44,623 nucleotides of DNA from Phycisphaeraceae bacterium (GTDB taxonomy: Bacteria; Planctomycetota; Phycisphaerae; Phycisphaerales; Zrk34): positions 1 to 44,623 of the forward strand of contig JANQHK010000155.1 in assembly GCA_028282685.1 (NCBI GenBank). The letters run 5' to 3'. The notes below the pieces were generated by a model. That model did not search any database. It worked only from the letters and a program-made list of their open reading frames with translations, and had not been told where the DNA came from. The position numbers and the translations under genes are program-made. Below, piece after piece: positions 4,288-28,951 of this stretch. Position 1 is the stretch's first letter; every line of letters starts with the position of its first letter.

Positions 4288-6056
4288 ACGCTGCCGCGCA
4301 ATCATCCCGCCCCAAGCTGCTGATTGCCTATCTGCTGATCTGGCTTGCCGTCACCGCGGTCACGGCCCTGGTGGTCCTGGCTGAGATGTTCCTGGGTTCG
4401 TGGACCGGCTGGATCACGGCGCCGTTGTGCTTTGTCGCGATCCTGGCGGTGGGCCGAAAGGTCCTGGCGGACACCGGTGAGATGCCCGCGGCGAAGCAGC
4501 ACCTTGCGCGATTGGCCGGCAGTTACTTCGTGGTCAATCTTGTGGGCGCCTTTTCTCTGGCCGTTACCGAAGGGATCAATCCCTACAACGCGCTCAACCT
4601 CGTCGCGGTCATCGTGTTCATCAACGGCTGGTTGCTCGTCGCCCTGCTGGCGCTGGCGCGCTGGGCGCTGACGCGGCGCCACCCCGTGCTGAGCGTGGCG
4701 CGGCAGACGCTCGACGAAGCCCGTGGCCTGCGCGTGGTGAACGGTTTCTTCCTGCTGTTTCTGCTGCTCATTCCCATGCTGGTGTTTTTACTGTCGCCCG
4801 ATCAGCCGATTCGCTACCGCATCCAGCAGTTCATGACGTATGGACTGGGCATCAGCCAGTTTCTTCTGGCGGCTTTCGTGATCCTGTTCGGGGCCTGGAC
4901 GCTGACCAGCGAGTTCACCGGCCGCCAGGCGCAGGTGTCGCTGGTCAAGCCGATCGGGCGCGGCGCGTTCTGGCTGGGCAAATGGCTGGGCATGGTGATT
5001 CTCAGCGGGGTGTTGCTTGGCATTGCCGCCCTGACGGTCTACTTGTTCACGGTGTTCTACCTGGCCAGGCAGCCGGCCCTGGATGAGCTGGACGCCCTGC
5101 TTGTGAAACAGGAAGTGTTGACGGCGCGCGTGGCCAGCCCGCCGCAGCCGCCGGACAACCTGACGAATCGCGTGGACAAGCGCATGGAGGAAATGCTCTC
5201 CACGGACACCGGCCGATCGCTGGTGATCGAGCGGGGCGGCCAGGCGGCGGTGCGAAACGAAATGCTCCAGCGGGAGTTGGCGCAATGGCGCTCGATCGGT
5301 CCGTATCGCCAATCCGAGCGCTGGCACCAGGACTACTACTTCACCGATCTGCGGCGTGCCGCCCGGCAGAGCGAGTTCCTCTCTCTGCGCTACAAGATCA
5401 AGGTCAAGGGCGATTGGGGCGTGACCACCAAACTGTTCCTGGTGATCAACGACAAGCCGTACAAGCAAATCGAAACCCCGCTCGACATCGTCCAGCGCCA
5501 GCCGATTCCTTCGCGCCTGGTCGACGATGAGGGGCGTCTGAAAATCACCGTCGTCAACCTCGATCCGAAAATCTCGGTGATATTTCCCGCCGATCATTTG
5601 GAACTGCTTTACACCGTCGATCGATTCGGCCCGAATTACCTGCGCGGCATGGTGATTGTCTGGATCAAGCTGTCGTTTGTGGCGGTGCTGGTGCTGTCGT
5701 TATCGACCTACCTGGGTTTTGCCGTGGCGTCGCTGGCGTCGGGACTGGTCTGGGCGGTGGCGACGTTCAGCCCGTACCTGCTGGAGGCGGCGGGACGATT
5801 CTCCGCCAAACCCGAAGACGCCGAAACCGTGCGCTGGGCGACGTCCGTGGTGCGCTGGGTGGCGACGTCCGTGGCATGGTTGGGTCAGCAATACGCCGCG
5901 TATCAGCCGATCGACCGACTGGCCGAGGGTTTGTACATCGGCTGGGACCAGTTGCTCGGTTGTGCCGGATGGATCGGGCTGGCGTGGAGTCTGCCGCTGG
6001 CGCTCAAAGCGTGGGTGGTCTTCCGCAGACGCGAACTGGCGCACGTGCAGGTGTAA
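4284..6056 (+). CDS. ABC-2 type transporter permease
   Basis: A 590-residue membrane subunit with about five hydrophobic segments in the first 270 residues, a soluble loop of about 190 residues (roughly 275-465) and further hydrophobic segments near 470-500 and at the C-terminus. The large loop between membrane halves is common in planctomycete ABC-2 permeases of the NatB/gliding-motility exporter type. The GTG start at 4284 overlaps the ATPase stop (GTGA), so the two are translationally coupled. The loop carries a strand-rich section (LKITVVNLDPKISVIF) suggestive of a beta-sandwich outside the membrane. The substrate cannot be told from sequence. Confidence 0.8.
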   Translation: MNAAAQSSRPKLLIAYLLIWLAVTAVTALVVLAEMFLGSWTGWITAPLCFVAILAVGRKVLADTGEMPAAKQHLARLAGSYFVVNLVGAFSLAVTEGINPYNALNLVAVIVFINGWLLVALLALARWALTRRHPVLSVARQTLDEARGLRVVNGFFLLFLLLIPMLVFLLSPDQPIRYRIQQFMTYGLGISQFLLAAFVILFGAWTLTSEFTGRQAQVSLVKPIGRGAFWLGKWLGMVILSGVLLGIAALTVYLFTVFYLARQPALDELDALLVKQEVLTARVASPPQPPDNLTNRVDKRMEEMLSTDTGRSLVIERGGQAAVRNEMLQRELAQWRSIGPYRQSERWHQDYYFTDLRRAARQSEFLSLRYKIKVKGDWGVTTKLFLVINDKPYKQIETPLDIVQRQPIPSRLVDDEGRLKITVVNLDPKISVIFPADHLELLYTVDRFGPNYLRGMVIVWIKLSFVAVLVLSLSTYLGFAVASLASGLVWAVATFSPYLLEAAGRFSAKPEDAETVRWATSVVRWVATSVAWLGQQYAAYQPIDRLAEGLYIGWDQLLGCAGWIGLAWSLPLALKAWVVFRRRELAHVQV

Positions 6057-18115: not shown

Positions 18116-20116
18116 TCGCAAACTCCCACTCCGTTAAGTCATGTCGCAACGTGTACTTGTTGCGTCCGGTGCGATTGGTCCGCTTCGGCGTCCCCGGCTT
18201 CGCGGGCACCCACTCGCGGTCCCAATACAACTCAACTCGTTTGAACAATCGTCGAAACGCCTCTCCGCGTTCGCGGTATTCAAGCGTCGGTAGTTCTGCC
18301 AACAACCGCTCGCGCTCGGCTTGTTGTTTTTTATCCCGATGGAACAGCGCCTCGATGCGTTCACCAAGAGGTACGGTGCGGGGTCGCCAGTTCTCCAGTT
18401 CCACCTCGGCTTCGTCAGCCTTACGCTTCAACACTGCCCGCTGCTGATCGCCCGTCGCCTCCACCCACGCGAGTGTGAACCGCTCGACGGCCTCGGTGGC
18501 CTCCCCAATTCGCCGCTCGGCCTCGGCTACCATGTTGGCCTCCACCATGGTGATCGCATCTTGAAATTCGGTGAGGTCGAACGGCAGTCGATTGAACCGC
18601 GTCTCACCCGGCGGGTCGTCGTAGAAGTGATCCAACGCCAGTCGCCGTACACGCTGAATTTCCGGGTAATTGATACCGTACTCCTTCACCAAGTAGCCCG
18701 CCAGAGCGTTGATACCCTACGGTGGCGTGGGCTTGAAACTCGCGGGAGAAGTCCTCGTCGTTACTCAGCCGGGCCAGCCGTTCTTCGATGTTCTCACGGG
18801 CCGCCGCACTCATCACCCGGTCAAACTCGACGTTCTGCTCGGCGAGCTTATCGAGCAACATTTGCTCTGCTTCATCATGCTTGATGGTATGGAAGCCGCA
18901 CTCAACCTTCTGCCCATTGCTTTGTGCGTTGCGGTATGTGTTGCACACGTATACCACTGATCCGTTATCCATCCGACCGGCCATGTGCTTGCCGCAATGG
19001 CCACAGTAAAGGATGTTTTTCAAATAATAGCGGGGATTGCGTGGGGCAAAGTTCGGTTGCTCACGCTCTGCCGCCAGTTTCTCCTTGGCGCGTTTCCACA
19101 TCTGCTTATCAATGAGCGGTTCGTGCGTTCCCTCCATGATGACCCGCTCGTCCTTACCCCGCCATCGCTTCTGCGCTTCTGTCGGTCCGTTGCGCCATCC
19201 CTTCACATCAACCATCTGCCCGCCGGTGTCGAACGTGCAGAAATCAGCTACCTGTGTTTTCCCAAAGTGTGTGTCGCCTGCGTAGGCGGGATTCTCAAGA
19301 ATGGTGGTAACGAGTGCGTGCGTGAACGGCTTGTCGTAGTAGGTGAGCCCCTCTTCGTTAAGCCGTTTGGAAATTCCCCGGCGGGATAACGATAACTCCG
19401 TGTATAGCTCGAAGACCCGCTGGACGGATCGAACGTGTTCTTCGTTATCGCTTTTCACCAGTTTGATCGTGTCGCTGTGGTCCTTACGCGGGATCTTTTC
19501 CGGCGTTACTTCGCGTGGTGTGTCGCGTAGAGTTCCATCTTCGTTTGAGTCGTAGGTCCATCCCCGCGTGCGGCTCACTGGTTGCCATACCCAACGCAAT
19601 GCACCTCCCGACCCGTAGCATGCCTTGCCGTAGCCAAAGGGGTGCGGACCGGTGGCCTGAACCGGTTGCCTTAAAGTTGCTTATCCGTGTCCGTATTGAT
19701 TGGTACGCGGATTGGCGTAGCTTCTCATCGTTGTTGTGCGCCCCGACCACCGCCAGCACATCCTCAGCTATGCCGTGCCGGGTCAGGTCGCTGTTGTCAC
19801 GCAGCGCGATGAGGCGTGTGCCGTGGGAACGTAGCGTTGCGATGATGGAGAAATATTCGAAGGTGTCGGTCTGACCAAACCGGTCTTGCGACTCCACATA
19901 TGCCGTGCTTATCTCATCGGTTTCGACCTGCTGTATGAATTTCTGGAACTCGTCCGAGGCCGAGACCTTGCTACGGCTAACGGTGTAGACATGCCAGTAT
20001 GGCTGCGGCACCTTGATGCCACGAACGGCCAGCATGTTCTTAACGTTATCGATCTGTCCTTGATGGTCTTGCTCGTCTGTCGATACACGGATGAGTACTG
20101 CTTCGTGTTTGGCCAT
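18090..20116 (-). pseudogene. Large serine recombinase, broken by two frameshifts
   Basis: Three open segments in different frames together make a large serine recombinase. 20116 to about 19655 has the resolvase domain with catalytic-Ser context LIRVSTDEQ. About 19655 to 18715 has the recombinase domain and a zinc ribbon (YCGHCGKHM and a later YVCNTYR). About 18715 to 18090 has the charged coiled coil and C-terminal tail ending in LAGGW. Frame changes occur near 19655 (after NFKATGS, continuing PHPFGYGK) and near 18715 (after HATVG, continuing INALAGY). The 3' end touches the attachment core, as expected for the integrase of this element. It may be truly decayed, or one or both shifts may be sequence errors. 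Confidence 0.8.
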
Positions 20117-20294
20117 AATGCTTAGACCTTACCCTGACCGTAGTATGAAAATTGAAGCAGTGCGGCCACCCGGTCAAGGTACAATGGCTCGGCTTGGGGC
20201 ATGATTCTTGTTTGCTTACGTTGTAGGCCTTTTCCCCGAGACTTGCTGGAGTTTCCTACTTCAGTATCTCGCTTGATTTCGGTACTGGATTTGA

Positions 20295-20885
20295 TCATCC
20301 AGCGTTTCTCAAATAGCGGTTGACGGTTGTGCGTGATACACCAAGGGCCGTGGCAATCTCGTCTTGCGTTAAACCCTTGTCGCGTAGTTTTATTGCACGG
20401 TCGGGTTTGGCCTTGGTGGTGCCGGGCTTGCGGCCTTGGTACACACCACGTTCTTTCGCGGCTTCAATGCCCACACGCTGCCTTTCTTTTATTGCTTCTA
20501 ATTCCATCTCCGCCACTGCAAACAACACGCCTGCAATCAGACGTCCTGTTGCGCCCGATAGATCGAGTTGCTGTGTGATGGATACAACACGCACTCTAAC
20601 ATCGCACCAGTTGGCGAGTAGGTTGATACCGTCGCGTTGCGTTCGCGATAACCGGTCCAGTCGCCACGTTACAACTGTTACGTGACGACCGGCAAAGATG
20701 GCTGCCTGTAATTGCTCCAATGCGGGGCGGGCGGTTGTCGTAGCCGTGTGTTTGTCCACGTACCACGTCGCGGCGTTGGGATCATGGCCGTGGTTGTTAA
20801 GCCATTCAGTAATGGCGGCGCGTTGGCCCGCTTCGTTTTGTCCGGTGGTGCTCACGCGGATGTAAACAGCAATCGTTTTCTGCAT
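20295..20885 (-). CDS. Small serine recombinase (resolvase/invertase family)
   Basis: A 196-residue resolvase/invertase. The N-terminal catalytic domain begins IAVYIRVSTTGQ (catalytic Ser in RVS) and includes TWRLDRLSRTQRDGINLL. A long E-helix region (AEMELEAIKERQRVGIEAAKERG) leads to a C-terminal helix-turn-helix (GLTQDEIATALGVSRTTVNRYL). ATG 20885 is chosen because ATGGAG precedes it by six bases; in-frame starts further upstream lack such a site. It probably resolves cointegrates or inverts DNA in the element; unlike the neighbouring large recombinase it is intact. Confidence 0.9.
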   Translation of the reverse strand: MQKTIAVYIRVSTTGQNEAGQRAAITEWLNNHGHDPNAATWYVDKHTATTTARPALEQLQAAIFAGRHVTVVTWRLDRLSRTQRDGINLLANWCDVRVRVVSITQQLDLSGATGRLIAGVLFAVAEMELEAIKERQRVGIEAAKERGVYQGRKPGTTKAKPDRAIKLRDKGLTQDEIATALGVSRTTVNRYLRNAG

Positions 20886-20975
20886 GTTTGTCTCCATTGT
20901 TGGTGTGTGCCGGTAAGGGTACACCTCTAATGGTGCTTGATGTAAGTCCAGAATGGCCCGATTTATCGCGAACTT

Positions 20976-21350
20976 TTAGCAGGGCGTCGGCGGGTAGGAG
21001 ATGTAGTTGCCCGTGGTGCCCGTCTGGTGGCAGTACTCCTTCCAGGCACCTTTGATCTCAATCCAGAACGATTCATTGTCATTGGTGACGACTAAATCGC
21101 ACTTTGTGCGTGGTTTGTCGGGGTAGCCCATTTCGGCGGCGGCCTGGATGCCATCGGTGTTTAGGAGTTCGGCTAAGCGTTTGCTCCAATTCGGTTCGGT
21201 CTGCGGTCGTTGCAGGTCGGACCGGACGTGGCCGCCGTACCAGTTCAAGCCGGTGGGTGTGCCTTTGGCCGTCGTGGTGTTGGCCTCCCGGTCCATCGCG
21301 TGCAGGTGTTCTATGATTCGCTGCACAATGGTTTCGGGAACGATGCCCAT
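20976..21350 (-). CDS. Possible PD-(D/E)xK nuclease-like protein, short
   Basis: A 124-residue protein. The segment CDLVVTNDNESFWIEIKGAWKEY places an Asp, then E-x-K about a dozen residues later, which is the arrangement of PD-(D/E)xK endonuclease folds. The earlier part (NWSKRLAELLNTDGIQAAAEMGYPD) would be the preceding helix. The protein ends soon after the motif, so it may be a C-terminally truncated restriction-type or repair nuclease. Neighbours are recombinases, and no methyltransferase is seen. Family membership is inferred from the motif alone. Confidence 0.5.
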   Translation of the reverse strand: MGIVPETIVQRIIEHLHAMDREANTTTAKGTPTGLNWYGGHVRSDLQRPQTEPNWSKRLAELLNTDGIQAAAEMGYPDKPRTKCDLVVTNDNESFWIEIKGAWKEYCHQTGTTGNYISYPPTPC

Positions 21351-22733: not shown

Positions 22734-23744
22734 TCAACCGGAGGGCCTCGCCAAATGCTTGAGCCATCGCCCCCACATGCTTTGAAGCGCCTTATCCTCG
22801 CAATTTTCTGCGGCCATCGCCATCTCATCTTTCCAGCCCCGACGCCGAGCATCTTCCGCTGCCAGAATCCAATACATGTTCGCAAGTGGTCCAAGACTAG
22901 ACACTCTGCGCCTCACCGGCTCGCACGGCCTCGAATCTCTGGGTTGAGCAATTAATTCGCGAGCAAGGCGATCCAACCCCTGCCATGCTGTATTTGAGTT
23001 TCGCATTGGCATACGGATATCAATTCCCTGCGGCAGCTTCGGCATTGTCTTGGTGCAAGTAAACTCTTTTAGTGCCTTTTCATACGCGTGAAGACTGCTT
23101 ATGGCATGCATATACGGACCGACTTCAGCGCCAATCCAACCCGCCATAATTTCCTGAAGGTAAGTGAACTGAACAAAGTTGTACGGCATACCACGGAACA
23201 CATCATTGCTGCGGCAGGTTTGGAGCCAGTGAAGGCGGCCATCCACAAGCCGTAGGCATGCTTGGGTGTTGCAAGGGACATCGCCTGTGCGAGGCTTCCC
23301 TGACATACGGGGCATATCTTTATTGGCGTTCCATATCGATAGGACCACTTGGCGTGTTTCGCCATTTGCTTTTAAGACTCTAGCTGCCTGTTTCAGTTGG
23401 TCATAGCCATAGCCGTACCGGAGCCTTGCCCCATACGCCCCAGGCGCGTGCTTTCCTCCACCGACATAATCCCCGTATTTTGAAAACCAATGCACCAAGA
23501 ACTTGACATCGTCTTTTCCAGCCATGATCTGCACGACCTCGGCTATAGCAAACGCGATGTTCATCGCAGGCGTGCGTGATGCCACCCATCTTGCACGGGG
23601 ATTACCAATCTGCACCGCTGCATGCATGAGTTCAACGGTTTTCCCATCACGCGACCCGATTTCATGGGTACCTTGACGATGAACAATGGCCCGAGCCGCC
23701 TGCCTCCACACCACATCCGCTGATTCCCCGGAAAACGTTTTCAT
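22734..23744 (-). CDS. Thymidylate synthase homologue (ThyA family)
   Basis: A 336-residue ThyA-fold enzyme. All main thymidylate synthase residues can be placed: nucleophile Cys158 in DVPCNT, phosphate-binding Arg178 and Asp181 in CRSNDVFRGMPYN, base-selecting Asn189, and His219/Tyr221 in LHAY. Asn rather than Asp at 189 argues for a dUMP (not dCMP) substrate. The product could be dTMP or, as in phage homologues, 5-hydroxymethyl-dUMP; sequence alone does not decide. It is longer than E. coli ThyA (264) with an extra C-terminal region. It is the last gene of the seven-gene operon, and its start overlaps the preceding stop by four bases. It is diverged from housekeeping ThyA and is cargo of the element. 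Confidence 0.85.
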   Translation of the reverse strand: MKTFSGESADVVWRQAARAIVHRQGTHEIGSRDGKTVELMHAAVQIGNPRARWVASRTPAMNIAFAIAEVVQIMAGKDDVKFLVHWFSKYGDYVGGGKHAPGAYGARLRYGYGYDQLKQAARVLKANGETRQVVLSIWNANKDMPRMSGKPRTGDVPCNTQACLRLVDGRLHWLQTCRSNDVFRGMPYNFVQFTYLQEIMAGWIGAEVGPYMHAISSLHAYEKALKEFTCTKTMPKLPQGIDIRMPMRNSNTAWQGLDRLARELIAQPRDSRPCEPVRRRVSSLGPLANMYWILAAEDARRRGWKDEMAMAAENCEDKALQSMWGRWLKHLARPSG

Positions 23745-24814
23745 GGAGAGGCACTCCTTTTCTGGATTTGTTCACGTACCATATCGTTTATGCCCCATTT
23801 AGGGGGAAACCATAGGTCTACGGGAGTTGATTTTGCTTTGAATACCTGCTTGATTCTAGTCCTTTTCGTTAAGCCTTTAACGTCGGGATGCATTACTCTG
23901 GCATACTTATCAACTTCGCAAAACAAATTTTGACAATCAATGAGTTGTAGACGCCGATCACCCAAACACTCGAATTGTAGACGACGTTTTTCAAACTCAT
24001 GTTCCTGTCGATCCGCCATTAGTTTAATCAAGTCCACGTCGCTGAGACCGCCCCGATCCTTGAAGCATTTCGCAATTCCATCACGAGCACCTGGCCCTGG
24101 CACAACGAACGACATTTCATCGTCGTCAAATATCGGCGAATAGTTGATATCGATCGTGAACTGAAAAGCCAGAAAAGGACCGAGCGTCGGATAAGAACGA
24201 AGGATTTCATACACTGCACTCAGTGTGGCGGCCCTACCTATACGCTTAGCAAGGCTATTTTTCATCATGTACTCAATCAAAGCAAGATGATTGCGGTGCT
24301 TTTCTTGGAAACCAAACGATGCACCACCGGAAGGCATAATGTATGCGGCTGAATATATCCGCTTCTTTGCCGCTCTAGCACCCGAAAGAACTCGGGAATA
24401 CTTACTTCGAGAGTAATTCTTCCAAGTCAATTCGCCCAAATGATTTTCAAGCAACTCCCACGTTTCAATCTTATTAAAAAGCTTGAACAGCATGATACGG
24501 AAGACAACTTCCTCGGGCGTTGACCTGCCCTTATATATCACATTTGCAATCAAGTACTGGCTTACGCGATCAGCCGCTCTATAGGCATTTGTGAATCGAT
24601 GCCTACGAAGTACCGGGTCGTCTGTCCACGGTGGTGGACAGCCTCTGACTCGCCGAAACATCGCAGCTTGACGCTCTGCTGCAAAATTCCAGTAACTATC
24701 AAAGACGGGCGTAGTTTTGACTGGATCGAGCCGAGCAAACACATACGGCGCGCGTACCGCAGATGTGACTAGTTGGTTCTTGGTTTGGGCTGGTCGCTGC
24801 ACAGACATACTCAA
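23741..24814 (-). CDS. Protein resembling the 5-hmdU DNA kinase helical family
   Basis: A 357-residue protein. PPWTDDP (61-67), then RFTNAYRAADRVSQY (73-87), then EEVVFRIMLFKLFNKIETWE (101-120) resemble the conserved N-terminal motifs of the helical family found in phage 5-hydroxymethyl-deoxyuridine DNA kinases and alpha-glutamyl/putrescinyl-thymine pyrophosphorylases. Those enzymes act in thymine hypermodification and are related in fold to helix-hairpin-helix DNA glycosylases. A central segment (SYPTLGPFLAFQFTIDINYS) and an acidic DDDEMSF fit that fold. Neighbours are a thymidylate synthase and a nucleotide kinase, which suits base modification. The family call is by memory of motifs; the reaction is inferred. 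Confidence 0.6.
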   Translation of the reverse strand: MSMSVQRPAQTKNQLVTSAVRAPYVFARLDPVKTTPVFDSYWNFAAERQAAMFRRVRGCPPPWTDDPVLRRHRFTNAYRAADRVSQYLIANVIYKGRSTPEEVVFRIMLFKLFNKIETWELLENHLGELTWKNYSRSKYSRVLSGARAAKKRIYSAAYIMPSGGASFGFQEKHRNHLALIEYMMKNSLAKRIGRAATLSAVYEILRSYPTLGPFLAFQFTIDINYSPIFDDDEMSFVVPGPGARDGIAKCFKDRGGLSDVDLIKLMADRQEHEFEKRRLQFECLGDRRLQLIDCQNLFCEVDKYARVMHPDVKGLTKRTRIKQVFKAKSTPVDLWFPPKWGINDMVREQIQKRSASP

Positions 24815-24823
24815 TGAAGAAGG

Positions 24824-25429
24824 TCAACGGATATTGTCCAACTTGGCGACAATTTGTTCGGCATAGGAACTTCTGTCGTCTTGGCGCTCAATTGAATAAA
24901 CCGGAAACTCTGTTTCGAGTGACTCAAGGAAGCGACAGTATGCTAGACGGAGTTGTAAGCCATTGCCACCGGCTTTTTGCAGTCGTTCCTTCGGGCCGAA
25001 AAGGACAAACGCTGCGGATGGGATAGCAAATCCCCAATGGTGACGAGCCAGAAGTTCAAGCAATTCCAATGTGCGTTCATCAACGCCTGCCTCCCTGCCA
25101 TAGATAATGGTGGACCACCAGAAGCGATCCATAATGATGGTATCTCCGCGTTCAAAAGCTGGCCGAATTTTTGTCTGGATGGCATCGATATGAGCCGCTG
25201 CGTGCAGGACCTGTAGACAGGCAGGAGTAACTGACTGAACGCCAAACGTTTCAGGCTTATGATGGAGGTCATAAATGAGTCGCCCGACAGTACCAGATTC
25301 ATTTCCTGGAAAGGCGAACAGATGAACAGTCTTGCCTGATGCCCGCAAGTTTTCTGCAAGCACCTCTGCTGTTGTGCTTTTGCCTCCTCCGTCTGGCCCT
25401 TCCAAAACAATTAGCCGACCAAGTGTCAT
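24824..25429 (-). CDS. Thymidylate-kinase-like P-loop kinase
   Basis: A 201-residue P-loop kinase of the dTMP kinase family. Walker A is GPDGGGKST (11-19), and the DR-x-x-x-S motif of dTMP kinases appears as DRFWWST (101-107). A Lys/Arg-rich lid near FGPKERLQKA is present. Length fits Tmk (about 205-215). In the operon it would phosphorylate dTMP or a modified dUMP made by the ThyA homologue. Its start overlaps the preceding stop (ATGA), and nine bases separate it from the next gene. It is probably not the housekeeping tmk, being on the mobile element. Confidence 0.85.
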   Translation of the reverse strand: MTLGRLIVLEGPDGGGKSTTAEVLAENLRASGKTVHLFAFPGNESGTVGRLIYDLHHKPETFGVQSVTPACLQVLHAAAHIDAIQTKIRPAFERGDTIIMDRFWWSTIIYGREAGVDERTLELLELLARHHWGFAIPSAAFVLFGPKERLQKAGGNGLQLRLAYCRFLESLETEFPVYSIERQDDRSSYAEQIVAKLDNIR

Positions 25430-26274
25430 TCAGTACCACCTTCGGTTTCCGCTGGCATCTCGCCAATGATTTCAGAAAGCGTCTCAGTAAGCTTCTTCGT
25501 TGCAGTTTTAGTAACGCTGCCTCGCTCCGGCAATGCGACAAAGATATTCACATGATGCAACGGCAAGGCCATCTCGTGCGCCATGAATGTCCCAAGTTGA
25601 CAGAGCCCTAGGTAGTTGCCATATCCCCGATCAAAGATGTATTCCGTGGGATAATACGCCGAAACAGACAGTCCTTGGTCAGTATGCCCAAAACTCACCT
25701 GTTGCAAACAAGGAAACCCTGACAGTGCAGCTCCTGTATGGTCTTTGGCAGGGTCGTAAATACTCACCTGAAGCGCGCTACGGCGTGTTTTACCTTGATC
25801 GCGATTCCACCAGCGGAGAATTTCCCTGAGTTGATTCACACGCTTGCCTTCGGGGGCACTAGAGCTCACTCCGGTGGCATCAATCATCCTGAGAAAATAT
25901 GTGCCTCTGCTGTTCAGCCGTGACAGCTTCTTGAGCCTAGGGTAAACACGTTTAACATAGTGCTCGAATAACTCGTCAGCAGGACGTGGCGCACGGGGCG
26001 ACCAACACATGTGAGGAAAGATCGTGCTTGCTGTTGCAGATACCGTCTGATGCTTGTGTTCACCCAAGCTGTGGTTGATGCTGCAGATCGTCTCATCCAA
26101 AGCCGTGCGAATGGCTGGAACCTCTATGGGTTCATGTAAATCGTCAAATTCTGAGATCGAAAGAACGATCGGCTCCTTCAACTCCCCTTTGACTGCACCG
26201 TAAACACGTAAAAAAGCAATTGCCCACGCTACGGACAGATTCCCACTTGATATGACAACATTATCAGCATTCAT
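25426..26274 (-). CDS. Divergent thymidylate-synthase-like protein, altered active site
   Basis: A 282-residue protein with no close family I know. Its C-terminal half can be aligned by eye with thymidylate synthase. FPCLQQVSF gives a Cys (189) where the nucleophile sits, and AYYPTEYIFDRGYGNYLGL matches the following strand-helix with the Asn (220) kept but the phosphate-binding Arg replaced by Pro209 and the Asp by Tyr212. LGTFMAHEMAL continues the match. The N-terminal half holds MCWSPRAPRPADELFEHYVKR. I infer a ThyA-fold paralogue that no longer binds a nucleotide phosphate in the usual way; it may act on another substrate, on DNA, or be a sensor or partner of ThyA. It overlaps both neighbours (11 and 4 bases). 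Confidence 0.5.
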   Translation of the reverse strand: MNADNVVISSGNLSVAWAIAFLRVYGAVKGELKEPIVLSISEFDDLHEPIEVPAIRTALDETICSINHSLGEHKHQTVSATASTIFPHMCWSPRAPRPADELFEHYVKRVYPRLKKLSRLNSRGTYFLRMIDATGVSSSAPEGKRVNQLREILRWWNRDQGKTRRSALQVSIYDPAKDHTGAALSGFPCLQQVSFGHTDQGLSVSAYYPTEYIFDRGYGNYLGLCQLGTFMAHEMALPLHHVNIFVALPERGSVTKTATKKLTETLSEIIGEMPAETEGGTE

Positions 26275-27133
26275 CGGGATCCTCTAAGTGTCGGTGAATA
26301 GCAGCCCCATCGTGGCATTTCGGCATAACACGCAGAAACGTGGCCCAATCATCAAGCGGGCATTCGGCTCGCGCAAGGCCACGCCGTATTGCCCTTACTG
26401 TCATGTAGCTTTCCGATTCTTCAACGACTTCAACCGCAGCACCCTCAACCAGTGCCCCTGTCGGCAAGAAAGCAAGATCACCAACGACAAGGTCAACAGG
26501 CCGGTCGGTCCAATGTTCATCGACGACCACAACATTCTCGCAAATTGGCTGACCCACAAGCGAGGCACGGATCGTCTTTGGCTGGACCGAAAGCAAACGA
26601 TCACATACTTCAAGGCTAAGCGAACGGATCGTCCAGCGAAGGTGGTTGATGAGCGTCTGATAGCCCACTCCAAGATGACCAGCAGCCACAAAGACCTGCT
26701 CCGCCGTCGGAGTGTTCAGCGACCAGCCACGTGCGGTAAATATACGAGTGACGGCAGCCTGAGGCATCAGCAGATAAGCCCCAAAAAGACTGGCTTGCAA
26801 TTCCTCCGGTTCGCCCTTTCGTCCTCGCTCGACACCCTCAATGTATTCATCTACTCTAGTACCATGGCCAAATGCATGGTGCCCAATTTCATGGGCACAG
26901 GTAGAGTTCTGGTAACCAACAGGGCGATCTGAACCAATCAAGACGACGGGATTCTCTCCCCCTGCATACATACCCGCCAGACTGGACAGCGGCTTGAACC
27001 AGACTTCAATACCTAGTTGCGCAGCAACATCAAGCACACAGATTGCATGATCCATTGGAATACCGAGACGTTTGCGGACCTGCATTGCGTGTCTGAGCAC
27101 GGTGCGTGCCTCACCAATGGCCAACTGCATCAC
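26264..27133 (-). CDS. ImmA/IrrE-family metallopeptidase
   Basis: A 289-residue protein with the COG2856 zinc-peptidase domain: HEIGHHAFGHG (81-91) holds the HExxH motif, and EELQASLFGAYLLMP (110-124) supplies the third ligand Glu and the family's typical following helix. ImmA/IrrE enzymes cleave partner XRE-type repressors in response to DNA damage or other signals. The XRE gene is immediately upstream with a four-base overlap, so this is a classic regulator pair. The C-terminal 100 residues look strand-rich (VVVVDEHWTDRPVDLVVGD) and may sense a ligand. In this operon it likely controls induction of the thymidylate-type genes. Confidence 0.9.
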   Translation of the reverse strand: MMQLAIGEARTVLRHAMQVRKRLGIPMDHAICVLDVAAQLGIEVWFKPLSSLAGMYAGGENPVVLIGSDRPVGYQNSTCAHEIGHHAFGHGTRVDEYIEGVERGRKGEPEELQASLFGAYLLMPQAAVTRIFTARGWSLNTPTAEQVFVAAGHLGVGYQTLINHLRWTIRSLSLEVCDRLLSVQPKTIRASLVGQPICENVVVVDEHWTDRPVDLVVGDLAFLPTGALVEGAAVEVVEESESYMTVRAIRRGLARAECPLDDWATFLRVMPKCHDGAAIHRHLEDPDEC

Positions 27134-27477
27134 GCTCCCCCTTCTGTCTTGAGAGCGTTTAACAGCCTGATCACACGTTGAAGGTCATCTGGCTTGAGTC
27201 GCTGCAACTCACGCGCCGCGAGTTCCAATTGTGGATCAACGGGATCGTCTTCTGGATCAGTGATCATGGTTAGCCACGTCACCGAAACGCGATAATGACT
27301 TGCTAAGGTCGAAAGTTCTTCGGCAGACACCCTGCGCTGTCCGGCTTCGATTTGGCTCACTGTTGGCCTGTGCCAACCCATTAACTTAGCGACTTGGCCT
27401 TGGCTAAGACCTGCTTGTTCCCTTGCGACGCGAAGCCGTTTCGCTATGCTCTCACGTTGTTCACTCATTTCTGTCAT
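27130..27477 (-). CDS. XRE-family HTH transcriptional regulator
   Basis: A 115-residue Cro/CI-type regulator. The helix-turn-helix spans about residues 10-65 (RLRVAREQAGLSQGQVAKLM, then GWHRPTVSQIEAGQRRV, then LASHYRVSVTWL). The C-terminal part is short and helical. It is followed by its probable protease (ImmA/IrrE type) and preceded by the ACP-like gene and the operon promoter, where a perfect 23-bp palindrome overlaps the -10. It is the likely repressor of the whole operon including itself. Confidence 0.92.
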   Translation of the reverse strand: MTEMSEQRESIAKRLRVAREQAGLSQGQVAKLMGWHRPTVSQIEAGQRRVSAEELSTLASHYRVSVTWLTMITDPEDDPVDPQLELAARELQRLKPDDLQRVIRLLNALKTEGGA

Positions 27478-27784: not shown

Positions 27785-27824
27785 ATAGGTAAGGATATCT
27801 TACCTATTGATCATGCTGTGTCAA
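27785..27824 (-). promoter_or_regulatory. Operon promoter with palindromic operator
   Basis: Read on the minus strand, TTGACA (27819-27824) is followed after 16 bases by TAAGAT (27797-27802). The perfect palindrome ATAGGTAAG-GATAT-CTTACCTAT (27785-27807) covers the -10. This is the expected position for repression by the operon's own XRE protein. Confidence 0.75.
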
Positions 27825-28246: not shown

Positions 28247-28951
28247 TCACTCGCATTTGTCGGTCCCGCCGTCACACAAAAAACGCCGCACCCATCGGCG
28301 CACGTTTCTTTCGTGGGTGCCAACTGTTCGGGCGATAGCTCGGTAGCTCATTCCTTCGTCATATAGTTGTCGCACTTGGGGCAGCAATCGTTCACGCCGC
28401 CGCTTCTTGTAGCATGGCTTGTTTGGCCGCCCACCGGTGTTTCCTTTTCGACGCTGCCCTCGTTTCGATTGGTGGGCTCGTTCTTCTTTCCAAGTAGCAT
28501 CAGGATCAAGGAGGGTCACTAACATCACGTCGCCACACACCCAACGCAGATCCCGTAATGCGATCATCCCGGCAACCAGATGGGGGCGGTGTTGGGAATG
28601 GTAACGCGGGTGTCGGGCGTATCGGCTCGTGCTTTCGGCGAGCAACACTGCACCGGCTCGTGCCGCTCGGTTGGCGGCGTCGTAAAGACCCGCATCAGCA
28701 TTGCCATTGCTTGCTCTACCAACCCAAAGCACAACGTCTACTACAGTGCCACCTCGGGCCTCAACGGCTGTATGAAGGTCGGTTTCTTGATCGGCATTGT
28801 TGCCTCTGGATTTCTGTTGGCACTTGGATACTCGGCACCAAATCACGACCTTGGTTCCCGGCTGTATGGTTTCAATGTCGTGGATGTAGGTGCTGGGAAG
28901 GTTGGATTTGTGTTGGCGTCTTGGCCGACGTATTCCGCGTTTTCGTTGCAT
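28247..28951 (-). CDS. Resolvase-like serine recombinase with C-terminal HTH
   Basis: A 234-residue protein. The N-terminal half resembles a resolvase catalytic domain (VIWCRVSKCQQ with the Ser in RVS; LLAESTSRYARHP like the conserved SRLxR region). The second half has a basic linker (RRKGNTGGRPNKPCYKKRRR) and a clear helix-turn-helix (GMSYRAIARTVGTHERNVRRWVRRF). AGAAGGG precedes the ATG. It lies at the right end of the element, 166 bases from the restored nfo. The catalytic domain is divergent, so activity is uncertain. Confidence 0.75.
   Translation of the reverse strand: MQRKRGIRRPRRQHKSNLPSTYIHDIETIQPGTKVVIWCRVSKCQQKSRGNNADQETDLHTAVEARGGTVVDVVLWVGRASNGNADAGLYDAANRAARAGAVLLAESTSRYARHPRYHSQHRPHLVAGMIALRDLRWVCGDVMLVTLLDPDATWKEERAHQSKRGQRRKGNTGGRPNKPCYKKRRRERLLPQVRQLYDEGMSYRAIARTVGTHERNVRRWVRRFLCDGGTDKCE

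What the first reader, a model, noticed from the sequence alone, without database searches (positions are those of the whole stretch)
25426..26274. Possible new ThyA-fold family with altered phosphate site
By eye the C-terminal half follows thymidylate synthase: Cys189 at the nucleophile place and Asn220 at the base-selecting place, but Pro209 and Tyr212 replace the phosphate-binding Arg and the nearby Asp. Such a change would alter substrate choice (nucleoside, free base, DNA) or turn the protein into a sensor. Having a normal and an altered ThyA in one operon is unusual.
Basis: inference. Interest (0 to 1): 0.7.

Follow-up and report, generated by a model that had tools for sequence, protein, structure and literature searches.

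The report
Altered thymidylate-synthase relative in base-modification operon
A relative of the enzyme that makes the DNA letter T, with its catalytic cysteine kept but its phosphate-binding site changed, is the constant part of a switchable, mobile gene cassette that probably makes an unusual pyrimidine nucleotide for conflicts with phages or plasmids.

Summary
The ORF at 25426-26274 (minus strand) is a thymidylate-synthase (TS) homologue: all 15 relatives scanned match the methanogen TS model, and the predicted structure matches TS-superfamily entries throughout its top 50. Cys189 and Asn220 are invariant in 25 relatives. Pro209 (TS Arg166) and Tyr212 (TS Asp169) are as described. The family splits into two supported clades: the window's has Pro or Ala at 209, the sister clade keeps Arg. 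So Arg loss marks a clade, not the family. The 'normal' operon ThyA is not the housekeeping enzyme, which lies on another contig; its best solved relative is the CMP 5-hydroxymethylase MilA.

The ORF is the fourth gene of a conserved cassette: acyl carrier protein (ACP), XRE repressor, ImmA protease, ThyA-like protein. All 24 readable intact loci have it. In the window one promoter with a palindromic operator precedes the ACP gene. Accessory genes vary (dNMP kinase, 5-hmdU-DNA-kinase domain, hydroxymethylase-like ThyA, dCTP deaminase, MazG, uracil-DNA glycosylase). Most likely this is an inducible pyrimidine-modification system on plasmids, prophages and integrated elements, probably for defence or inter-element conflict, with the ThyA-like protein acting on a uracil base. 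Substrate, cofactor and activity are not shown. I found no published description.

The parts
25426..26274 (-). ThyA-like protein (called ThyA* here), 282 aa; Cys189, Asn220, Tyr126 and Arg129 invariant in the family; Pro209 and Tyr212 replace TS Arg166 and Asp169
27797..27824 (-). promoter TTGACA-16-TAAGAT in front of the ACP gene
   Evidence: conserved in L001-L003 while DNA further upstream is not
27788..27804 (.). palindromic operator GGTAAG-N5-CTTACC overlapping the -10 box
   Evidence: single exact site in the window, 0.02 expected by chance; near-palindrome kept in L001-L003
27481..27768 (-). acyl carrier protein-like, 95 aa; phosphopantetheine Ser kept
   Evidence: NCBIfam acyl carrier protein E 0.007; Ser invariant in 23 aligned relatives; PF00550 1e-7 for the L013 relative
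27130..27477 (-). XRE-type repressor (CapH-like)
   Evidence: PF01381 5e-16; PADLOC capH 2e-13
26264..27133 (-). ImmA/IrrE metallopeptidase (CapP-like), HEIGH motif; its 3' end overlaps the ThyA* start by 11 bases
   Evidence: PF06114 1e-9; PADLOC capP 2e-10
24824..25429 (-). thymidylate-kinase-like P-loop dNMP kinase, 201 aa
   Evidence: PF02223 1e-17; fused to the HMUDK domain in L037
23741..24814 (-). 5-hmdU DNA kinase helical-domain protein, 357 aa
   Evidence: PF18723 HMUDK_hel 3e-111
22734..23744 (-). second ThyA-like protein, 336 aa, phage/MilA hydroxymethylase type; keeps TS Arg166, Ser167, Asp169, Asn177, His207 and Tyr209; Trp80 position is Tyr
   Evidence: phrog_5131 6e-52; best solved relative CMP 5-hydroxymethylase MilA 1e-15

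Best explanation
ThyA* is a TS-superfamily protein and the constant enzyme-like member of an inducible, mobile pyrimidine-modification cassette. Proposed working: the XRE repressor holds the operon off at the GGTAAG-N5-CTTACC operator; the ImmA protease relieves repression on DNA damage or infection, as in CapH/CapP pairs. The operon then builds a C5-modified deoxyuridine nucleotide or base. The MilA-like ThyA makes 5-hydroxymethyl-dUMP; the dNMP kinase plus HMUDK-domain protein, fused in one relative, phosphorylate the nucleotide or the hydroxymethyl base; MazG and dCTP deaminase, in related loci, shape the dUTP/dUMP pool. ThyA* uses Cys189 (attack on C6) and Asn220 (uracil-type base) on a uracil whose 5'-phosphate is held differently from dUMP in TS: a modified nucleotide, a nucleoside, or a base in DNA. 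The ACP, with its phosphopantetheine serine and often its own holo-ACP synthase, may carry the group added. The product most likely serves conflict with phages or other elements. Shown here: homology and fold, conserved residues, cassette, promoter and operator, mobility. Inferred: every reaction step, the inducing signal and the biological role.
For: TS homology and fold. Cys189, Asn220, Tyr126 (TS Tyr94), Arg129 and Tyr208 invariant in 25 of 25. Purifying selection. ACP-XRE-ImmA-(C1 peptidase)-ThyA* order in all 24 intact readable loci, from Planctomycetota, cyanobacteria, rhizobia, Burkholderia, Streptomyces and phage-like contigs. Operator and promoter. ACP serine invariant; holo-ACP synthase beside the ACP gene or at the end of the cassette in five rhizobial loci. 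Base-modification partners: HMUDK_hel, dNMP kinase and their fusion, MazG_C, UDG, dCTP deaminase, radical SAM. Conflict context: conjugative plasmids, prophage-type contigs with the cassette between terminase and portal genes, TIR-Nmad2 or phospholipase genes beside related HMUDK genes. The DefensePredictor paper (PMC13092281) reports a TS domain and a 5-hydroxymethyluracil kinase domain in experimentally validated anti-phage systems.
Against: TS Glu58, Trp80, His147, Asp169, His207/Tyr209 and the folate-closing C-terminal tail have no conserved counterpart in the window's clade, so ordinary folate chemistry is doubtful and the protein could be non-catalytic. The E58/W80 region is aligned with low confidence. 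Several loci (L011, L012, L014, L028, L033, L038, L042-L044) lack HMUDK and the second ThyA in the stretch read, so the hydroxymethyl step is not shared by all. No effector gene was identified in the window's operon. Whether the TS and hmdU-kinase domains validated in the paper lie in one system, or include a ThyA* homologue, could not be read.
Confidence: 0.5

Rival explanations
1. ThyA* is not an enzyme but a ligand-binding sensor or scaffold: it binds a (modified) pyrimidine nucleotide or DNA base, perhaps covalently through Cys189, and controls the ImmA/XRE switch or the ACP.
For: It is genetically tied more tightly to the regulators (ACP-XRE-ImmA, overlapping ImmA by 11 bases in the window) than to any modification gene. 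Several TS catalytic and cofactor residues are lost.
Against: Cys189, Asn220, Tyr126 and Arg129 are invariant in 25 divergent members, more than a plain binding fold would need. MazG, UDG, HMUDK or dCTP deaminase genes accompany nearly every locus.
Confidence: 0.25
2. The operon makes a permanent DNA mark (thymine hypermodification of the element's own DNA, as in phages such as SP10, ViI or M6) that protects from restriction, rather than an inducible attack or signal.
For: HMUDK_hel and hydroxymethylase-like ThyA are phage hypermodification parts. The cassette rides on plasmids and phage-like contigs.
Against: A repressor-protease switch with an operator over the -10 box fits induction, not constant marking. 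HMUDK is absent from many loci. No ThyA* match in 50,697 phage records.
Confidence: 0.17
3. ThyA* is an ordinary, divergent thymidylate synthase that backs up dTMP supply.
For: TS fold with nucleophile and Asn; PGAP names close relatives 'thymidylate synthase'.
Against: The genome has a canonical ThyA (E 1e-128). ThyA* lacks Arg166, Asp169, His207/Tyr209, Trp80 and the C-terminal tail. TIGR03283 scores 25.6 bits, far under its cut-off of 174.55.
Confidence: 0.03

Closest known systems
Methanogen-type thymidylate synthase (TIGR03283)
   Same: Only curated TS model that matches every member scanned (15 of 15, best 1.2e-12); Cys and Asn positions kept
   Different: Scores far below the family cut-off; window clade lacks the phosphate Arg and Asp169; different N-terminal half with a TIFP motif
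MilA CMP 5-hydroxymethylase (5jnh, 5b6d, 5b6e)
   Same: TS fold, VIA Z 15.7, rmsd 3.1 A over 204 residues
   Different: 13% identity; ThyA* keeps Asn at the base-selecting position in all 25 members; the operon's second ThyA is the closer MilA relative
Phage flavin-dependent dCMP hydroxylase AfhB (9iqc, 9iqu)
   Same: TS fold with altered chemistry, VIA Z 16.0, tied with MilA
   Different: 9% identity; no evidence here for flavin binding
5-hmdU DNA kinase systems of phages (PF18723 HMUDK_hel)
   Same: HMUDK_hel, kinase and TS-like hydroxymethylase genes side by side
   Different: The window cassette adds ACP, XRE, ImmA and ThyA*, and is on a bacterial contig
TS / dNMP kinase / 5-hmdU kinase domains in validated anti-phage systems (DefensePredictor, PMC13092281)
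   Same: Same domain types named among experimentally defensive E. coli systems
   Different: Supplement not readable here; membership of ThyA*, ACP or ImmA in those systems unknown; the main text does not contain 'acyl carrier' or 'ImmA'
CapH/CapP regulator pairs (PADLOC capH, capP)
   Same: XRE repressor plus HExxH metallopeptidase encoded together
   Different: Here they follow an ACP gene and precede ThyA*; in some relatives ImmA carries a chagasin inhibitor domain (PF09394) next to a C1 peptidase gene

Membership tests
Thymidylate synthase superfamily (fold and ancestry) | TS fold | tested here: met
   AF2 pLDDT 81.4, pTM 0.84; top 50 solved matches are TS-superfamily entries or designs on that fold, Z 13.6-16
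Thymidylate synthase superfamily (fold and ancestry) | Sequence homology to TS models | tested here: met
   TIGR03283 in 15 of 15 members, best 1.2e-12; PF00303 only 0.0036 at best
Thymidylate synthase superfamily (fold and ancestry) | Nucleophilic Cys146 | tested here: met
   Cys189 in 25 of 25
Canonical thymidylate synthase (ThyA, dTMP-forming) | Base-selecting Asn177 | tested here: met
   Asn220 in 25 of 25
Canonical thymidylate synthase (ThyA, dTMP-forming) | Phosphate-binding Arg166 and nearby Asp169 | tested here: not met
   Pro209 and Tyr212 in the window; Arg in 11 of 25, Asp in 0 of 25
Canonical thymidylate synthase (ThyA, dTMP-forming) | Curated score cut-off of a TS equivalog model | tested here: not met
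   25.6 bits against 174.55 for TIGR03283
Canonical thymidylate synthase (ThyA, dTMP-forming) | Catalytic Glu58 and folate-site Trp80 | tested here: inconclusive
   No conserved Glu or Trp at the aligned columns, but the N-terminal half aligns poorly
dCMP/CMP hydroxymethylase | Asp in place of Asn177 (T4-type dCMP enzymes; from general knowledge) | tested here: not met
   Asn in 25 of 25
TS-fold flavin-dependent dCMP hydroxylase (AfhB) | Flavin binding and dCMP hydroxylation | not testable with these tools
   Fold similarity only, Z 16.0
Thymine hypermodification system | HMUDK-type kinase parts together with a TS-like hydroxymethylase | tested here: met
   Window genes 22734-25429; kinase-HMUDK fusion in L037
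Thymine hypermodification system | Modified base present in DNA | not testable with these tools
   Needs LC-MS of DNA
CapH/CapP-regulated defence operon | XRE repressor plus HExxH ImmA peptidase encoded in the operon, operator at the promoter | tested here: met
CapH/CapP-regulated defence operon | Protection from phage | not testable with these tools

The most novel reading that the evidence does not exclude
ThyA* is a TS-fold enzyme that has swapped folate for a carrier-protein donor: Cys189 activates the uracil C5, which then attacks an acyl or related group held on the phosphopantetheine arm of the operon's ACP, giving a C5-acylated (or otherwise ACP-derived) pyrimidine. The ACP gene is first in the cassette in all 24 intact loci, keeps its serine, and often has its own holo-ACP synthase, while the folate-site residues of ThyA* appear to be gone.
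Probability: 0.12. Interest if true: 0.88.

Novelty: new variant of a known kind. Interest (0 to 1): 0.62.

Why it matters
If right, this adds a branch to the small set of TS-fold chemistries. It also links an acyl carrier protein to pyrimidine modification under a protease-controlled switch, on elements that move between distant phyla. The system is directly testable: one operon, one catalytic Cys, one carrier Ser, and a product readable by mass spectrometry. It also bears on the recent finding that TS and 5-hydroxymethyluracil kinase domains can take part in anti-phage defence, whose chemistry is unknown.

Tried and rejected
First structure run with three close sequences gave pLDDT 40 and was discarded; seven diverse sequences were needed. 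PDB sequence search with the family profile found nothing; profile comparison with the operon's ThyA was weak (probability 9%, E 0.003), although the aligned blocks agree. Pfam gave no significant hit for the ORF. Phage records gave no ThyA* match; a clade-B profile scan of viral contigs gave none. A housekeeping or back-up TS role was rejected because the genome has its own canonical ThyA; no ThyX was found. The idea that Pro209 defines the family was rejected. An ACP-like hit in Azoarcus (L041) is beside a ketoacyl synthase gene, not this cassette. Papers: the 2015 nucleotide-centric conflict survey (PMC4678834) is not held; no held paper describing the ACP-XRE-ImmA-ThyA* cassette was found. 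Terminator scan found only weak candidates after the last gene.

Full report
CHECK OF THE OBSERVATION. The ORF lies exactly at 25426-26274 on the minus strand and gives 282 aa from an ATG. In an alignment with the genome's own canonical ThyA they fall on E. coli TS positions Cys146, Arg166, Asp169 and Asn177. Pfam has nothing for the ORF. NCBIfam TIGR03283, the methanogen-type thymidylate synthase, matches it at E 7e-6. Each of 15 family members matches the same model on its own, best 1.2e-12. The gene is under purifying selection (dN/dS 0.05-0.28 for pairs where dS is not saturated). An AlphaFold2 model from seven diverse sequences, without templates, has pLDDT 81.4 and pTM 0.84. Its best solved matches are TS-superfamily entries: Foldseek E 7e-7 and up; VIA-align Z 16.0 for a phage flavin-dependent dCMP hydroxylase, 15.7 for the CMP 5-hydroxymethylase MilA and 14.5 for a Brucella TS. 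Those Z values differ by little, so the nearest functional type is not decided. I could not measure where Cys189 sits in a pocket, because coordinates are not exposed.

THE FAMILY. I call the protein ThyA*. Relatives were found in Planctomycetota genomes (L001 72%, L002 65% identity; a few more at 39-48%), on plasmids of cyanobacteria, rhizobia and Streptomyces, in phage-like contigs and, through the neighbouring ImmA gene, on Burkholderia, Acuticoccus and Sulfitobacter plasmids. It is rare: 4 of 392 Planctomycetota genomes, the window's own genome included. In 25 aligned members the invariant residues are Phe86, Pro87, Tyr126, Arg129, Cys189, Leu190, Tyr208, Gly219, Asn220, Leu224 and Leu227. 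Tyr126 falls on TS Tyr94. Position 209 (TS Arg166) is Arg in 11, Pro in 9 and Ala in 5; position 212 (TS Asp169) is never Asp. A tree separates the Arg group (11) from the Pro/Ala group (14) by one branch with 100/99 support. The Pro/Ala group mostly keeps an Arg at position 164 (TS Arg126); the Arg group has mostly lost it. The Arg group, not the window's, also shows an STHA/AGHA motif near the TS His207 region. So each clade has altered the phosphate site in its own way. The member of the Arg group in L034 sits beside the same dNMP kinase, HMUDK and second ThyA as the window's type, plus a dCTP deaminase, so the Arg-to-Pro change alone does not mark a change of pathway.

THE OPERON. Seven minus-strand genes run from 27768 to 22734 with overlaps of 4 to 11 bases or gaps of at most 9: an acyl carrier protein (ACP), an XRE repressor, an ImmA/IrrE metallopeptidase, ThyA*, a thymidylate-kinase-like protein, an HMUDK_hel protein and a second ThyA-like protein. 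The ACP call rests on a weak model score for the window protein (E 0.007) but on a strong PF00550 score for a relative (1e-7) and on a serine at the phosphopantetheine position that is invariant in 23 aligned copies. A holo-ACP synthase gene lies nearby in five rhizobial loci. A sigma-70-type promoter, TTGACA-16-TAAGAT, lies just upstream of the ACP gene, with a perfect palindrome GGTAAG-N5-CTTACC over its -10 box. It is the only such site in the window (0.02 expected). Both are conserved in L001-L003, where the DNA further upstream is not. The cassette region has lower GC (0.49-0.52) than the flanks (about 0.6) and serine-recombinase genes lie close by, so it was probably acquired.

THE CASSETTE ELSEWHERE. 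In all 24 loci that are intact and readable upstream, ThyA* is preceded on the same strand by ACP, XRE and ImmA, in some with a C1 peptidase between ImmA and ThyA*. Three other loci are not counted: L034 begins at ThyA*, L003 carries an internal deletion, L018 has a broken ThyA*. The accessory genes vary: HMUDK, dNMP kinase, second ThyA, dCTP deaminase, MazG with MazG_C, uracil-DNA glycosylase, radical SAM. In L037 the dNMP kinase and HMUDK_hel are one 564-aa protein, which ties the window's two separate genes together as one kinase function. L028 and, by shared neighbours, L038 hold the cassette between a terminase gene and a portal gene. HMUDK genes without ThyA* occur beside TIR-Nmad2 pairs or a CBASS-type phospholipase.

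THE SECOND ThyA. It is not the housekeeping enzyme. The genome's canonical ThyA is on another contig with 425 bits to PF00303, against 70 bits for the operon copy; there is no ThyX. The operon copy matches phage TS family phrog_5131 (6e-52) and its best solved relative is MilA. It keeps Arg166, Ser167, Asp169, Asn177, His207 and Tyr209, while the Trp80 position is Tyr. From general knowledge of TS chemistry, loss of that Trp favours water attack on the C5-methylene intermediate, that is, hydroxymethylation; this is inference.

HOW IT PROBABLY WORKS. Shown: homology, fold, residues, cassette order, promoter and operator, mobility. Inferred: repression by the XRE protein and relief by ImmA, as described for CapH/CapP (PADLOC capH and capP match); formation of 5-hydroxymethyl-dUMP by the second ThyA; phosphorylation by the kinase/HMUDK pair; action of ThyA* on a uracil ring through Cys189 and Asn220, with a different 5' anchoring; supply of a group by the ACP. 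The purpose is most likely conflict with phages or other elements. One 2026 paper reports that a TS domain and a 5-hydroxymethyluracil kinase domain occur in experimentally validated anti-phage systems in E. coli and lists TS, dNMPk and 5hmdUk in the figure legend (PMC13092281); whether these are in one system could not be read. The main rival is that ThyA* is a non-catalytic sensor, since it is tied most tightly to the regulatory genes and lacks conserved counterparts of TS Glu58, Trp80 and His207/Tyr209 (the N-terminal alignment is uncertain).

NOVELTY. The TS superfamily, HMUDK systems and CapH/CapP control are known. A TS subfamily fixed in an ACP-XRE-ImmA cassette is, as far as the held literature shows, not described; subscription papers and the 2015 survey of nucleotide-centric conflict systems were not available. 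I therefore rate it a new variant of a known kind. The most novel reading not excluded is an ACP-dependent TS-fold enzyme.

Noticed in passing
L037:8767-10461: Thymidylate-kinase-like domain and HMUDK helical domain fused in one 564-aa ORF, a natural link between two separate window genes.
   Followed up: partly
L028 and L038 (phage-like contigs): ACP-XRE-ImmA-ThyA*-MazG cassette sits between terminase and portal genes of prophage-type contigs, with a DUF1643 gene upstream.
   Followed up: partly
L011:4312-5334 and 5334-6014 (also L012, L014, L018, L042-L044): In the clade with Arg209, ImmA can carry a chagasin-type cysteine-peptidase inhibitor domain (shown for L011) and is followed by a C1 peptidase gene: a protease-inhibitor pair inside the regulatory module.
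   Followed up: no
L003:7920-8893: Deletion in a close relative joins the N-terminal part of ThyA* (residues 1-113) to the region of the second ThyA (from residue 144), removing the kinase and HMUDK genes; real rearrangement or assembly error not decided.
   Followed up: no
L018:3681-4515: ThyA* is split over two ORFs in Rhizobium ruizarguesonis, apparently broken, while the rest of the cassette and HMUDK remain.
   Followed up: no
window 20976-21350 (minus): Short ORF with a CDLVV...FWIEIKGAW stretch that looks like a truncated PD-(D/E)XK nuclease; no family match above cut-off.
   Followed up: no
window 19484-20924 and 28247-28951: Serine recombinase/resolvase-like ORFs on both sides of the cassette; relatives L001-L003 also have a recombinase nearby, suggesting a mobile element.
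   Followed up: partly
L017, L021, L024: HMUDK genes without ThyA* lie with TIR-domain plus Nmad2-type gene pairs or a CBASS-type phospholipase gene on plasmids, a possible modified-nucleotide signalling arrangement.
   Followed up: no
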